Source of the DNA: Pseudomonadota bacterium
GTDB taxonomy: Bacteria > Pseudomonadota > Gammaproteobacteria > Xanthomonadales > Xanthomonadaceae
Assembly: GCA_023388355.1 (NCBI GenBank)
Contig: JAEWGI010000037.1
Span: forward strand, 1 to 64,000
Direction of reading: 5' to 3'
DNA length: 64,000 nucleotides
Each line of letters starts with the position of its first letter. Position 1 is the stretch's first letter. The notes under the pieces are model-generated. The model was not told the origin of the DNA. It worked only from the letters and a program-made list of their open reading frames with translations, and ran no database searches. The translations under genes and the position numbers were made by a program. Positions 15,710-28,643 of this stretch are shown here, piece after piece.

Positions 15710-16723
15710 TCAGCCGCTCCCGGGAGGGGGCGCGGCGGTCGAGCCGCGCAGCATCAGGCGGAAGTCCAGGGTCTGCTGGTGGGGCACTGCCACCGCGCCG
15801 ATGATGGCGAGCAGGAGCTTGACCGCGCCGACGCCGATCTCGCGCATGGGCTGGCTGATGGTGGTCAGCGGCGGACTCAGGTAGCGCGACGAGGCCAGGT
15901 CGTCGAAGCCGACCACCGAGAAATCCTCCGGCACGCGGATGCCCAGGTCCCTGCACGCGGCCAGCACGCCCAGCGCCATCTGGTCGCTGAAACAGAACGC
16001 GGCGGTGGGCGCGGATGCCTGGCCCAGCAGCCTGGCTGCGGCCGCATGGCCGGATTCGACCGAAAAGTCCCCCGGCGCGACCGTCAGCTGGCGCAGGCGG
16101 CCGCGTGCCCTGGCCGCGGCCCTGGCCCCCTGCAGGCGCTGCTGGTGCAGCGGGTTGTCGAGCGGGCCGCCGACCACGGCGATGCGCTCGTGGCCGAGCG
16201 CATACAGATGCTCCATCGCCGTGCGCGCGGCCGCGGCGTTGTCGATGTGGACGCTGGGAATGCCCAGCGCCGGGTCGAATTCGCACCCGTTGACGACCGG
16301 CGCGGTGGCGCCGAGCTGGCGGACGATCTCGCGCGCGGTCGGCGGAAGCCGGTGCCCGAGGACGATCATGCCGTCGGCCTCGTTGCGCGGGAGCATCTGC
16401 GCGTAGCGCTCTTCGCGTTCGGGCTGGTGCTGGGTATCGCCGAGCAGGACCGCGTAGCCGGCCGCCTGCGCCGCTTCCTCCGCGCCCTTGAGGATCTGGG
16501 CGAAGAACGGATTGCCGATGTCCGGCACCGTGATCAGGATCTTGCCGCTGCGCTGGGTCTTGAGCGTCCTGGCCGCCGCGTTGGGGATATAGCCCAGCGC
16601 GATGGCCGCCAGCTCGATGCGCTTGCGCGTGGCCGGCAGCACCTTCTCCGGCCGTGACAGCGCGCGCGACACCGTGCCTGCCGAGACGCCGACGTATCTG
16701 GCGATGTCGTGGATGGTTGCCAT
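15710..16723 (-). CDS. LacI-family transcriptional repressor of the sugar island
   Basis: 337 residues. Residues 1-50 are the LacI DNA-binding domain: MATIHDIARYVGVSAGTVSRALSRPEKV with recognition helix TVSRAL, then the hinge helix NAAARTLKTQRSG. The remainder is a periplasmic-binding-protein-like effector domain (VPDIGNPFFAQILKGAEEAA, HERIAVVGGP, FCFSDQMALGVLAA, VVGFDDLASSRYLSPPLTTI). The start is ATG 16723; an upstream Met at 16756 would add eleven residues before MATI and is rejected. It is divergent from the first catabolic gene, and a perfect LacI-type palindrome lies between them, so it is the expected local repressor with a sugar or keto-sugar as inducer. Confidence 0.9.
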   Translation of the reverse strand: MATIHDIARYVGVSAGTVSRALSRPEKVLPATRKRIELAAIALGYIPNAAARTLKTQRSGKILITVPDIGNPFFAQILKGAEEAAQAAGYAVLLGDTQHQPEREERYAQMLPRNEADGMIVLGHRLPPTAREIVRQLGATAPVVNGCEFDPALGIPSVHIDNAAAARTAMEHLYALGHERIAVVGGPLDNPLHQQRLQGARAAARARGRLRQLTVAPGDFSVESGHAAAARLLGQASAPTAAFCFSDQMALGVLAACRDLGIRVPEDFSVVGFDDLASSRYLSPPLTTISQPMREIGVGAVKLLLAIIGAVAVPHQQTLDFRLMLRGSTAAPPPGSG

Positions 16724-16782
16724 GGGCGGCCCGGGAGCTTCCGATGCGGTGCACAACGCGTGCCCGGATCACTGCATGCTAG

Positions 16783-16801
16783 GATAATGCAATCGATTGC
16801 A
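16783..16801 (+). promoter_or_regulatory. -10 element and LacI-type operator, copy 1
   Basis: TGCAATCGATTGCA (16788-16801) is a perfect 14-bp palindrome with the central CG typical of LacI/GalR operators. GATAAT (16783-16788), one mismatch from TATAAT, overlaps it by one base, so the start site would fall inside the operator and bound repressor would block initiation. The first gene begins 15 bp later. No good -35 hexamer is evident. An identical operator occurs at 28603-28616. Confidence 0.8.
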
Positions 16802-16816
16802 TCAAGACGGATCGGC

Positions 16817-17869
16817 ATGCGAACACTCCAGGGTCCGGCGCTGTTCCTGGCGCAGTTCATCGGCGACACGCCCCCGTTCGACCGTCTCGACACGCTGGCC
16901 GGATGGGCCGCGGGGCTCGGCTATCACGGCGTGCAGGTGCCGACCGGCGCGCCGCACATCTTCGATCTCGCCCGGGCCGCGCAGAGCCAGGCCTACTGCG
17001 ACGATGTCGCCGGCATGCTGAACCGGCACGGGATCCGGATCAGCGAACTGTCCACCCACCTGCAGGGACAGCTGGTGGCCGTGCATCCGGCCTACGACGC
17101 GCTGTTCGACGGATTCGCGCCGGAGGACAGGCGCGGCGATCCCGCGGCCCGGCAGGCCTGGGCGGTCGAACAGGTGACGCTGGCGGCAAAGGCCAGCCAG
17201 CGCCTGGGCCTCGGGGCGCACGCCACCTTTTCCGGCGCGCTGGCCTGGCCGTACCTCTATCCGTGGCCGCAGCGTCCGCCCGGCCTGGTGGACGAGGCGT
17301 TCGCCGAACTCGGCCGCCGCTGGCGTCCGATCCTCGACGCCTTCGACGCATGCGGCGTGGACCTGTGCTACGAGATCCATCCGGGCGAGGACCTGCACGA
17401 CGGCGCCACCTTCGAGCGCTTCCTCGATGCGGTGGACCATCACCCGCGCGCGAAGATCCTCTACGACCCCAGCCACCTGCTGCTGCAGCAGATGGACTAC
17501 CTGGGCTTCATCGACCGCTACCACGAGCGCATCGGCGCCTTCCACGTCAAGGACGCCGAGTACCGCGCCGATGCGCGCAGCGGCGTGTATGGCGGCTACC
17601 AGGACTGGATCGACCGCCCGGGCAGGTTCCGCTCGCCGGGCGACGGGCAGATCGACTTCAGGGCGATCTTCTCGAAGCTGGCCCAGTACGACTTCCCGGG
17701 CTGGGCGGTCGTGGAGTGGGAGTGCTGCCTGAAGCATCCCGAGGACGGCGCACGCGAGGGCGCGGCCTTCATCCGCGACCACTTGATCCGCGTGACCGAA
17801 CACGCGTTCGACGACTTTGCCGGCAGCGGCGCCAGTCCGCAGGCGCTGCGCGGCATGCTGGGGCTTTGA
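16817..17869 (+). CDS. Sugar phosphate isomerase/epimerase (AP endonuclease 2 fold)
   Basis: 350 residues, cytosolic TIM barrel. Metal-binding segments of the xylose-isomerase-like superfamily are visible: CYEIHPGEDLH (Glu and His), KILYDPSHLLLQQMDY (Asp, His), GAFHVKDAEY (His) and VVEWECCLKHPEDG (final Glu). The family covers isomerases, epimerases and, in recent work, 3-keto-glycoside lyases or eliminases. It is the first gene of a six-gene operon whose other members fit keto-sugar catabolism, so an isomerase or lyase of an oxidised sugar is inferred. Start MRTLQGPALF is the first Met after the operator. Confidence 0.8.
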   Translation: MRTLQGPALFLAQFIGDTPPFDRLDTLAGWAAGLGYHGVQVPTGAPHIFDLARAAQSQAYCDDVAGMLNRHGIRISELSTHLQGQLVAVHPAYDALFDGFAPEDRRGDPAARQAWAVEQVTLAAKASQRLGLGAHATFSGALAWPYLYPWPQRPPGLVDEAFAELGRRWRPILDAFDACGVDLCYEIHPGEDLHDGATFERFLDAVDHHPRAKILYDPSHLLLQQMDYLGFIDRYHERIGAFHVKDAEYRADARSGVYGGYQDWIDRPGRFRSPGDGQIDFRAIFSKLAQYDFPGWAVVEWECCLKHPEDGAREGAAFIRDHLIRVTEHAFDDFAGSGASPQALRGMLGL

Positions 17870-27433: not shown

Positions 27434-27465
27434 GGGTGACTGCTTCCTGGAGGAATGCCGGTGGT

Positions 27466-28338
27466 TTACACGTCGCAGAGACGGATGGCCTCGCGCAGGG
27501 AGGCGACCGGGTCGGATGCCGAAGGCATGAATTCCTGGGCGAGGAATCCTTCGAAGCCGGTGTCGCGGATGGCACGGCAGATGGCCGGGTAGTTGAGTTC
27601 CTGGTCGTCGCCGATCTCGTGCCTGCCCGGTACGCCTGCGGTGTGGTAATGCACGAAGAACCGGTGGTTCCTGCGGATGGTGGCGATGATGTCGCCCTCC
27701 ATGATCTGCATGTGGTAGATGTCGTAGAGCAGGCCGAAGTTCCCCGAACCGAGGCGCTCGCACAGCTCCACGCCCCAGGCGGAGCGGTCGCACAGGTAGT
27801 CGGGGTGGTCCACGCGCGAGTTCAGCAGCTCCATCACCAGCATGACGCCGCGCTTCTCGGCATGGGCAAGGATGCGCTTGAGGCCGGCGGCCGAATTGAC
27901 CAGGCCCTGCTCCGGATCCATGCCGTTGCGGTTGCCGGAAAAGCAGATCAGGTTGCGGTAGCCGGCATCGGCCACCAGGTCGATGTGGCGGGTGTAGCGC
28001 GCCACCAGCTCGTCGTGGAAACGGGTGTCGGCAAAACCCTTCTCCAGCCCGAGTTCGGCGCCGTTGCACATCGAGCTGTGCACGCCGTGCGCCTTGAGCG
28101 TGGGCCAGTCGTCCGGGCCGACCAGGTCGATGGCGGAAAAGCCGATCCCCTTTACCGTCCGGCACAGCTCGGCGACCGGCATCTGTCCGAACGTCCAGCG
28201 CGCGACCGAATGCCTGATATTGGCCTTCAGCGGCTGCTCGGCGGCCGCCGCCGCGGGAACGAGCCCGGACGCGGCCAGGCCGATTCCGCCGACCATCGTG
28301 GCGCGCAGCGCGTCGCGCCTGGTGAATGCCTGGTTCAA
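27466..28338 (-). CDS. Tat-exported TIM-barrel protein (hydroxypyruvate isomerase-like)
   Basis: 290 residues. TTG at 28338 is taken as start because AGGAGG (28345-28350) stands six bases before it; the next in-frame upstream TTG at 28362 has no site. The signal AFTRRDALRATMVGGIGLAASG has the twin-arginine pattern. The mature domain is a hydroxypyruvate-isomerase-like barrel: MVMELLNSRVDHPDYLCDRS, LLYDIYHMQIMEGDI, VHYHTAGVPGRHEI and FLAQEFMPSASDP, containing the expected Glu, Asp/His, His and Glu metal ligands. First gene of the minus operon. Inferred role: periplasmic isomerisation or cleavage of an oxidised sugar. Confidence 0.82.
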   Translation of the reverse strand: MNQAFTRRDALRATMVGGIGLAASGLVPAAAAAEQPLKANIRHSVARWTFGQMPVAELCRTVKGIGFSAIDLVGPDDWPTLKAHGVHSSMCNGAELGLEKGFADTRFHDELVARYTRHIDLVADAGYRNLICFSGNRNGMDPEQGLVNSAAGLKRILAHAEKRGVMLVMELLNSRVDHPDYLCDRSAWGVELCERLGSGNFGLLYDIYHMQIMEGDIIATIRRNHRFFVHYHTAGVPGRHEIGDDQELNYPAICRAIRDTGFEGFLAQEFMPSASDPVASLREAIRLCDV

Positions 28339-28591
28339 TTCAGCCCTCCTCGGGTGTGCCAACGCCGCCGCCGGGGCGTGCGGCCGCGGCCGACTGCGGG
28401 GCGGCCTGAAGATGCGATCGGTTCCGCTGGACCGTGGAAGATACGCCGTGCGGCATCCGGACCCGACTGCCGGCGGACAGGTTCCTGAATCGCGATGCCC
28501 GTGGCGCGCGCAGCGTCCTCAGCCCCGACATCGACCTGATCGAAGGGATCCCCATCCATCCACCGGCCTCCCAACCGGCACAGACATGCAA

Positions 28592-28643
28592 ATCCGTACG
28601 GATGCAATCGATTGCACGATAACAACAGCGTGCCCGATTGCAA
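28592..28643 (-). promoter_or_regulatory. Promoter with LacI-type operator, copy 2, and adjoining palindrome
   Basis: TGCAATCGATTGCA (28603-28616) is identical to the operator at 16788-16801. Read on the minus strand, TTGCAA (28638-28643) and TATCGT (28616-28621) with a 16-bp spacer form a weak promoter whose -10 overlaps the operator by one base, as in copy 1. A second perfect palindrome ATCCGTACGGAT (28592-28603) shares one base with the operator. The predicted leader to the first gene is about 265 bases. Confidence 0.7.

What the first reader, a model, noticed from the sequence alone, without database searches (positions are those of the whole stretch)
15710..28643. Ten-gene glycoside-oxidation island with two complete flavoprotein/small-subunit pairs
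Two convergent operons each contain a GMC dehydrogenase, its subunit-3-like partner, a DUF1080 protein or domain and a TIM-barrel isomerase-type protein. This matches the outline of 3-keto-glycoside catabolism (glucoside 3-dehydrogenases and 3-keto-disaccharide hydrolases). Having two divergent dehydrogenase pairs under one repressor suggests two substrates or two oxidation positions on one complex glycoside. Families are recognised from motifs; the pathway and substrate are inference.
Basis: partly seen in the sequence, partly recalled or inferred. Interest (0 to 1): 0.75.

Follow-up and report, generated by a model that had tools for sequence, protein, structure and literature searches.

The report
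Periplasmic 3-keto-glycoside lyase-hydratase fusion island
A bacterial gene island that probably breaks sugar-aglycone bonds by oxidising the sugar and then eliminating the partner, rather than by ordinary hydrolysis, in which an imported gene set was joined to an older one so that two enzymes became a single two-domain protein.

Summary
In detail: ten structural genes in two convergent operons plus a LacI gene (15710-28362). Both dehydrogenase/small-subunit pairs, two DUF1080 domains and three TIM-barrel domains are there. The pathway class is right, but the chemistry reads better as oxidation, beta-elimination, hydration and reduction than as hydrolysis. TIM1 is an AtHYD-type 2-hydroxy-3-keto-glucal hydratase. 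The barrel of the fusion is an AtOGE-type beta-eliminase with the published ligands and catalytic histidine conserved. Its DUF1080 part resembles proteins deposited as 3-keto-2-hydroxy-glucal hydratase and eliminase/hydratase, so the fusion may join two consecutive periplasmic steps. 'One repressor' is supported: the palindrome TGCAATCGATTGCA lies at both operon promoters and recurs as that pair in related genomes. The two pairs are not an old duplication: eight other Xanthomonadaceae loci carry the island with pair B only, seven of them with a cytochrome c gene where seven of 52 genus genomes have a DUF1080-GMC-subunit 3 cassette. Its GMC groups inside Rheinheimera. L. wenzhouensis keeps DUF1080 as a separate gene with its own signal peptide. 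No activity or substrate was tested. New variant of a known kind.

The parts
15710..16723 (-). LacI-family regulator of the island
   Evidence: Pfam LacI 54.3 bits and Peripla_BP_3 137.4 bits; shared operator at both operon promoters
16788..16801 (.). Operator palindrome TGCAATCGATTGCA at the LacI/TIM1 divergent promoter
   Evidence: exact; one of two matches in the window at up to 3 mismatches; recurs in relatives
16817..17869 (+). TIM1: AtHYD-type 2-hydroxy-3-keto-glucal hydratase; no signal peptide seen by eye (cytoplasmic)
   Evidence: 586 bits over residues 1-350 to PDB 8ro4
17912..19135 (+). Nucleoside-H+-symporter-like MFS transporter, proposed importer of the 3-keto sugar or glycal
   Evidence: PF03825 377.2 bits; below the TIGR00889 nucleoside permease cut-off
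19146..20270 (+). Gfo/Idh/MocA oxidoreductase, proposed 3-keto-glucose reductase
   Evidence: PF01408 103.7 bits; a Gfo oxidoreductase has that role in the A. tumefaciens operon (PMC10628242)
20383..21858 (+). Two-domain fusion with signal-peptide-like N-terminus: AtOGE-type 3-keto-O-glycoside beta-eliminase (about residues 1-280) and DUF1080 (about 282-491)
   Evidence: 316 bits to 8bvk and DUF1080 matches; metal and catalytic residues conserved; model pLDDT 90.0, pTM 0.83; Foldseek
21855..23534 (+). GMC_A: FAD dehydrogenase with C-x5-C-x3-C motif, part of the incoming cassette
   Evidence: PF05199/PF00732; 1.6e-50 to FAD-glucose dehydrogenase 6a2u; motif; tree
23534..24325 (+). SUB_A: gluconate 2-dehydrogenase subunit 3 family; SRRDSLK and a lipobox-like LSAC near the N-terminus (by eye)
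   Evidence: PF13618 80.8 bits; sequence
24415..25176 (-). DUF_B: DUF1080 protein of another subgroup, signal-peptide-like N-terminus (by eye)
   Evidence: PF06439 143.4 bits; only PDB match at E 1e-3 is 4qhz, 249 bits; 27% identical to the fused DUF1080
25173..25748 (-). SUB_B: subunit 3 family, Tat-like N-terminus (by eye)
   Evidence: PF13618 111.9 bits; sequence
25748..27433 (-). GMC_B: FAD dehydrogenase with C-x5-C-x3-C motif, native to the Xanthomonadaceae island
   Evidence: PF05199/PF00732; 4.3e-33 to fructose dehydrogenase 8k6k; match at E 1e-150 in 33 of 198 family genomes
27466..28362 (-). TIM2: hydroxypyruvate-isomerase-like TIM barrel with Tat-like TRRDALR (by eye); E178, D214, H240, E277 invariant in 36 rows; start uncertain
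28603..28616 (.). Second copy of the operator, upstream of TIM2 (operon B promoter region)
   Evidence: exact match; sequence context

Best explanation
The island encodes oxidative, non-hydrolytic catabolism of glycosides, mostly beta-glucosides, under one dedicated LacI repressor. Proposed order: (1) GMC_A/SUB_A and GMC_B/SUB_B oxidise C3 of a glycosyl unit in the periplasm, passing electrons to a cytochrome c. (2) The eliminase domain of the fusion removes the aglycone or next sugar by metal-dependent beta-elimination, leaving 2-hydroxy-3-keto-glucal. (3) The fused DUF1080 domain hydrates that glycal to 3-keto-glucose on the same polypeptide (it may also cleave some 3-keto-glycosides itself). 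(4) The MFS protein imports the 3-keto sugar or unhydrated glycal. (5) In the cytoplasm TIM1 hydrates what arrives as glycal and the Gfo protein reduces 3-keto-glucose to glucose. (6) TIM2 and DUF_B, both with export-like N-termini, handle keto-glycosides that the fusion does not take; TIM2 most likely epimerises or isomerises them. Shown here: gene content, homology, conserved eliminase active site, shared operator, cassette gain, fused and unfused states. Inferred: every enzymatic step, compartments, direction of transport, substrates, repressor binding.
For: TIM1 matches PDB 8ro4, '2-hydroxy-3-keto-glucal hydratase', with 586 bits end to end. The fusion's TIM domain matches AtOGE (8bvk) with 316 bits, 55% identity and target TM 0.93 on the model. 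The AtOGE ligands and catalytic residue named in PMC10628242 (His132, Asp163, His189, weak Glu233, His134), and Asn133, are identical in 121 of 121 rows: the window and the 120 best of 1153 matches, of which P0001 is the window's own protein. Solved relatives of the DUF1080 domain are titled 3-keto-2-hydroxy-glucal-hydratase (8tda, 8v31) and 3-keto-glycoside eliminase/hydratase (8rr2, 9fbe); further barrel relatives are titled 3-keto-beta-glucopyranoside-1,2-lyase (8tcr, 8tcd, 8tct). P0048 carries the two domains in reverse order. An A. tumefaciens operon of the same four steps is described in PMC10628242. Regulation: operator exact at two window sites, no other within 3 mismatches; exact in 11 of 13 whole genomes, at the two island sites in each, with one extra copy in one genome; the two Xanthomonas have 1- and 2-mismatch forms at the same places. 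In G001, G004 and G005 the island's two DUF1080 domains are the only ones found.
Against: No activity was measured. DUF1080 members may cleave 3-keto-glycosides themselves (BT2157 is called a 3-ketotrehalose hydrolase in PMC9007349; 8rr2 is titled eliminase/hydratase), so the hydratase role of the fused domain is one of two readings. A cytoplasmic AtHYD-type hydratase is also present, so a periplasmic one would be partly redundant. No DUF1080 catalytic residue was tested; no paper naming one was found. No cytochrome c gene lies in the island, and the five named Luteimonas genomes have no close copy of the relatives' one (best E 9.1e-6), so the electron path is open. The Gfo protein is far below the NCBIfam cut-offs for levoglucosan dehydrogenase (196.1 of 650 bits) and BT_2159 (44.9 of 650). 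Operator: 55 of 100 whole-window shuffles also gave at least two matches at up to 3 mismatches, so the weight lies in exactness, position and recurrence; the promoter scan found no sigma-70 match. Export was read by eye; no predictor was run.
Confidence: 0.75

Rival explanations
1. The fused DUF1080 domain is not a downstream hydratase but a second cleaving enzyme, taking alpha-3-keto-glycosides (or other aglycones) that the beta-selective eliminase domain cannot; the fusion widens anomer range rather than chaining two steps.
For: AtOGE cleaves 3'-keto-cellobiose but not 3'-keto-maltose (PMC10628242 section 11). BT2157 (DUF1080) is described as a 3-ketotrehalose hydrolase (PMC9007349), and 8rr2/9fbe are titled eliminase/hydratase. 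In Rheinheimera and Pseudoalteromonas the same DUF1080 sits with GMC_A with no close AtOGE relative beside it (the Pseudoalteromonas neighbour barrel is 24% identical).
Against: 8tda, identical to BT2157 (3osd) over the aligned stretch, and 8v31 are titled 3-keto-2-hydroxy-glucal-hydratase. The reverse-order fusion P0048 pairs the same two domains, which fits consecutive steps at least as well.
Confidence: 0.35
2. One reading: two dehydrogenase pairs under one repressor because a complex glycoside is oxidised at two positions or two substrates are used, followed by 3-keto-disaccharide hydrolysis.
For: GMC_A and GMC_B are 34% identical and differ in the C-terminal loop; both operons share the operator.
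Against: Eight of 80 fetched loci (L006, L010-L016) carry the same island with pair B and without pair A at that place, so the older pathway does not need both. Cleavage relatives are eliminases and hydratases.
Confidence: 0.3
3. The GMC proteins are ordinary gluconate, fructose or glucose dehydrogenases and the neighbours form a loose sugar-acid cluster.
For: The best solved relatives of both GMCs are FAD-glucose and fructose dehydrogenases.
Against: Co-occurrence with AtOGE- and AtHYD-type genes in several genera and the GlycDH operon precedent (PMC10628242).
Confidence: 0.06

Closest known systems
Agrobacterium tumefaciens GlycDH/AtOGE/AtHYD/Gfo operon (PMC10628242)
   Same: Flavoenzyme dehydrogenase (with a TAT-pathway partner in Rhizobium sp. 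GIN611), AtOGE-type eliminase, AtHYD-type hydratase and a Gfo oxidoreductase
   Different: Here the eliminase has a signal-peptide-like N-terminus and is fused to DUF1080; two GMC pairs, a second DUF1080, TIM2, an MFS transporter and a LacI regulator are added
Caulobacter crescentus lac cluster, lacABC plus DUF1080 (PMC9007349)
   Same: [quoted passage not shown] That LacA is GMC-type and LacB a cytochrome c is recalled. Xanthomonadaceae relatives have a cytochrome c in what looks like the matching place
   Different: No cytochrome c in this island, extra cassette, fusion; no sequence comparison with LacABC was made
Bacteroides/Alistipes 3-keto lyase and hydratase proteins (PDB 8tcd, 8tct, 8tda, 8v31; titles only)
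   Same: A TIM-barrel 3-keto-glucopyranoside lyase and a DUF1080 hydratase
   Different: There solved as separate proteins; here one polypeptide with an AtOGE-type barrel
Rheinheimera/Pseudoalteromonas DUF1080-GMC-subunit 3 cassette (L007-L009, L017, L018, L123)
   Same: Same three genes in the same order, GMC 78-89% identical
   Different: DUF1080 is a separate protein with its own signal peptide in the five L007-L018 loci read; no fusion to an eliminase

Membership tests
AtOGE-type 3-keto-O-glycoside beta-eliminase | TIM barrel with His132, Asp163, His189, Glu233 metal ligands and catalytic His134 (PMC10628242) | tested here: met
   Identical in 121 of 121 aligned rows including the window; target TM 0.93 to 8bvk_B
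AtOGE-type 3-keto-O-glycoside beta-eliminase | Cleaves 3-keto-beta-glucosides giving 2-hydroxy-3-keto-glucal | not testable with these tools
   needs an assay
2-hydroxy-3-keto-glucal hydratase (AtHYD) | Full-length similarity to 8ro4 | tested here: met
   586 bits, residues 1-350 on 1-349
2-hydroxy-3-keto-glucal hydratase (AtHYD) | Hydration activity | not testable with these tools
   needs an assay
DUF1080 / 3-keto-disaccharide hydrolase (PF06439) | Score above the Pfam cut-off (26.8 bits) | tested here: met
   170.5 bits (fusion) and 143.4 bits (DUF_B)
DUF1080 / 3-keto-disaccharide hydrolase (PF06439) | Catalytic residues of the characterised hydratases | not tested
   no source naming them was found
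GMC dehydrogenase with subunit 3 (glucoside 3-dehydrogenase type) | GMC domains, adjacent subunit 3, C-x5-C-x3-C (recalled as the iron-sulfur motif of FAD-glucose/fructose dehydrogenases) | tested here: met
   motif in 120 of 120 GMC_A-type proteins P0121-P0240 and in 11 of 11 GMC_B loci examined
GMC dehydrogenase with subunit 3 (glucoside 3-dehydrogenase type) | Oxidation at C3 of a glycoside | not testable with these tools
   needs an assay
Nucleoside permease (TIGR00889) | NCBIfam cut-off 446.1 bits | tested here: not met
   364.6 bits
Levoglucosan dehydrogenase (NF052479) | NCBIfam cut-off 650 bits | tested here: not met
   Gfo protein 196.1 bits
Hydroxypyruvate isomerase (TIGR03234) | NCBIfam cut-off 353.45 bits | tested here: not met
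   TIM2 92.4 bits
3-keto-glucoside 4-epimerase (YcjR) | Fold and metal site | tested here: inconclusive
   [not shown]

The most novel reading that the evidence does not exclude
Luteimonas has made a periplasmic two-domain '3-keto-glycosidase': beta-eliminase and glycal hydratase on one chain, so that the reactive 2-hydroxy-3-keto-glucal is hydrated before it escapes. It arose when an imported DUF1080-GMC-subunit 3 cassette settled beside the eliminase gene and the incoming signal peptide was lost close to its cleavage site, in more than one lineage or with later recombination.
Probability: 0.4. Interest if true: 0.65.

Novelty: new variant of a known kind. Interest (0 to 1): 0.5.

Why it matters
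It ties an island found in many Xanthomonadaceae but labelled only as isomerase, nucleoside permease and GMC oxidoreductase (as in the X. sacchari plasmid record) to a recently described non-hydrolytic route of glycoside breakdown. It gives a 14-bp operator that marks the regulon, and natural fused and unfused versions of two enzymes for testing whether linkage helps handle a reactive intermediate.

Tried and rejected
The window's own assembly is not held. The extra operator copy in G002 (C17:602100) was looked at: by eye it lies between ORFs with no evident link, and it was not pursued. A first GMC_A tree with two GMC_B rows and three 53-55% rows (L104-L106) had very long branches and open forks; those five rows were dropped and P0170 added. 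One search holds 28 rows: the window, 10 genome loci, one plasmid locus and 16 of the 120 listed GMC_A homologs, chosen mostly because a source named the organism; L008, a Gammaproteobacteria MAG, was counted with Rheinheimera. The Alteromonadales used as outgroup were not one side of a branch (Neptunicella groups with R. soli), so the root, and with it 'nested in Rheinheimera', is less sure than the clade itself; the rejection of one Rheinheimera clade (p-AU 0.0045) may partly reflect that row. 'Duplication of the pair within the island' was rejected.

'A single clean fusion event' was not upheld. In a tree of eight core proteins from the window and 14 loci (L015 left out) the unfused L005 is sister to fused L004 (100/100), and one fused clade is rejected (p-AU 2.5e-6). 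In the eliminase tree L005 sits instead with P0015 (fused) and unfused P0017, P0018 and P0042, and one fused clade is again rejected (p-AU 0.00076). Both tests were run on groups known beforehand only from the fused or unfused state. Repeated fusion and recombination are not told apart. One search used 41 rows: the window and seven Luteimonas loci, 15 fused clusters (P0002-P0016), 11 of the 104 other listed proteins (P0048 not among them) and seven other loci (L013 left out). P0014-P0016 lack the word DNQL, so they went in uncut and their linkers were not read.

The promoter and terminator scan found no sigma-70 match, and terminators at about chance (3 against a mean of 4.6). Paper searches for the Stenotrophomonas glucoside 3-dehydrogenase and 3-ketovalidoxylamine lyase, recalled leads, gave no useful paper. 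The listings showed no title on this fusion; subscription journals are mostly missing, so this is weak. Kastner et al. 2024 (Angew. Chem.), on the non-hydrolytic pathway, was seen only as an entry in the reference list of PMC12101588.

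
Full report
WHAT IS THERE. The window holds LacI (15710-16723, -), operon A on the + strand (TIM1, MFS, Gfo/Idh/MocA, TIM-DUF1080 fusion, GMC_A, SUB_A; 16817-24325) and operon B on the - strand (TIM2, GMC_B, SUB_B, DUF_B; 28362-24415). GC in 4-kb steps is 0.68-0.72 across the island, as in the rest of the window.

WHERE THEY SIT. By eye, the fusion, DUF_B, TIM2 and both small subunits have export-like N-termini (twin-arginine-like in SUB_A, SUB_B and TIM2); TIM1 and the Gfo protein do not. 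No predictor was run. This places oxidation and cleavage in the periplasm, import at the MFS protein, and hydration and reduction inside.

ONE REGULATOR. TGCAATCGATTGCA occurs at 16788 (between LacI and TIM1, just after a TGCTAGGAT box, by eye) and at 28603 (upstream of TIM2) and nowhere else in the window within 3 mismatches (that count is not rare in shuffles at that tolerance, 55 of 100). The two upstream regions share this 14-mer; 2 of 2000 single-letter shuffles of the two regions shared any 14-mer. Of 13 whole genomes with the island, 11 have the exact palindrome at the two island sites, ten of them nowhere else and one (G002) with one extra copy; the two Xanthomonas have 1- and 2-mismatch forms at the same two places. 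L129 has both exact, L130 one exact and one with 1 mismatch, and the X. sacchari plasmid island 1- and 2-mismatch copies. In the 14 other loci scanned (Rheinheimera or Rheinheimera-like, Paracoccus, Halomonas) no match within 2 mismatches was seen, so the operator belongs to the Xanthomonadaceae version.

HOW THE ISLAND WAS BUILT. Of 80 loci fetched with the fusion as query, five Luteimonas loci have the whole set, and eight Xanthomonas, Pseudoxanthomonas and Stenotrophomonas loci have LacI, TIM1, MFS, Gfo and a separate eliminase facing DUF_B, SUB_B, GMC_B and TIM2, without GMC_A, SUB_A or DUF_A. In seven of those eight (not L015), and in the X. sacchari plasmid, a small cytochrome c gene follows the eliminase at the meeting point; L015 has a melibiase/GH31-like ORF there. 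None of the five Luteimonas genomes has a close copy of that cytochrome c (two weak matches, best E 9.1e-6). In Rheinheimera (L007, L009, L017, L018) and a Gammaproteobacteria MAG (L008) the genes DUF_A, GMC_A and SUB_A stand as a cassette, and five further loci of these genera hold DUF_B, SUB_B, GMC_B and TIM2 elsewhere (L046, L052, L057, L062, L067). By record name, R. oceanensis (L007, L062) and the MAG (L008, L057) have both at separate places. In a Pseudoalteromonas plasmid the cassette lies in line with a Gfo protein, an AtHYD-type gene and an MFS gene. In the GMC_A tree the 11 Xanthomonadaceae rows form one clade (96/92), which joins seven Rheinheimera-type rows with 100/99; a single Rheinheimera clade is rejected (p-AU 0.0045, with the caveats told under Tried and rejected). 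GMC_A at E 1e-250 is in 6 of 395 family genomes, GMC_B at 1e-150 in 33 of 198. In the genus, 7 of 52 genomes have an eliminase match at 1e-60, and these seven all have the cassette. The simplest history is a Rheinheimera-like cassette settling where relatives keep a cytochrome c.

THE FUSION. In L. wenzhouensis (L005) the eliminase ends with a stop at 10751-10753, and DUF_A starts at 10791 with a signal peptide much like the Rheinheimera one. In the window and L001-L004 the eliminase runs straight into DNQL, the first residues after that peptide; in L130 the remnant GALAA precedes DNQL. By Pfam labels 16 listed clusters (P0001-P0016) have this domain order, and P0048 the reverse. On the trees the state has switched more than once: L005 is sister to fused L004 in a tree of eight core proteins, but its eliminase groups elsewhere. 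Repeated fusion and recombination at this spot cannot be told apart yet. The model of the fusion is confident (pLDDT 90.0, pTM 0.83), but distances between the active sites were not available.

MECHANISM. My reading is oxidation at C3, beta-elimination, hydration, import and reduction. Enzymatic steps, compartments and substrates are inferred from relatives. AtOGE prefers beta-glucosides and takes 3'-keto-cellobiose but not 3'-keto-maltose, so beta-glucosides are the likeliest substrates. A genetic precedent is C. crescentus, where lacABC, a DUF1080 gene, a transporter, two epimerases and a reductase matter for growth on lactose (passages of PMC9007349).

NOVELTY. The pathway is known. New, as far as the listings show, are the eliminase-DUF1080 fusion, its cassette origin with an unfused relative, and the island-specific operator.

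Noticed in passing
L015 10921-13422 (-): An 833-aa ORF with melibiase (44.1 bits) and GH31 (40.0 bits) matches stands in the Pseudoxanthomonas sangjuensis island where seven of eight relatives have a cytochrome c, so the operon meeting point seems to be a site where genes are exchanged.
   Followed up: partly
L006, L010-L014, L016 downstream of the eliminase; L121 16327-16623: Small exported-looking cytochrome c gene between the eliminase and DUF_B; a likely electron acceptor of the GMC_B pair.
   Followed up: partly
L121 (Xanthomonas sacchari plasmid NZ_CP010410.1): The cassette-free island is carried on a 509-kb plasmid.
   Followed up: no
window about 35053-62832: Polysaccharide genes: NAD-dependent epimerase, Wzy-type ligase, polysaccharide synthesis protein, sugar transferase, glycosyl transferase, UDP-sugar dehydrogenase and two right-handed beta-helix proteins (47259-50330, 55687-58359).
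   Followed up: no
P0048 (802 aa): Reverse-order DUF1080-eliminase fusion with a further C-terminal stretch of about 250 residues without a Pfam match.
   Followed up: partly
L104-L106 (G025, G167, G193): GMC proteins 53-55% identical to GMC_A in three other family genomes, close to a GMC_B-like gene of 58-59% identity in G167 and G193; possibly a third dehydrogenase group.
   Followed up: no
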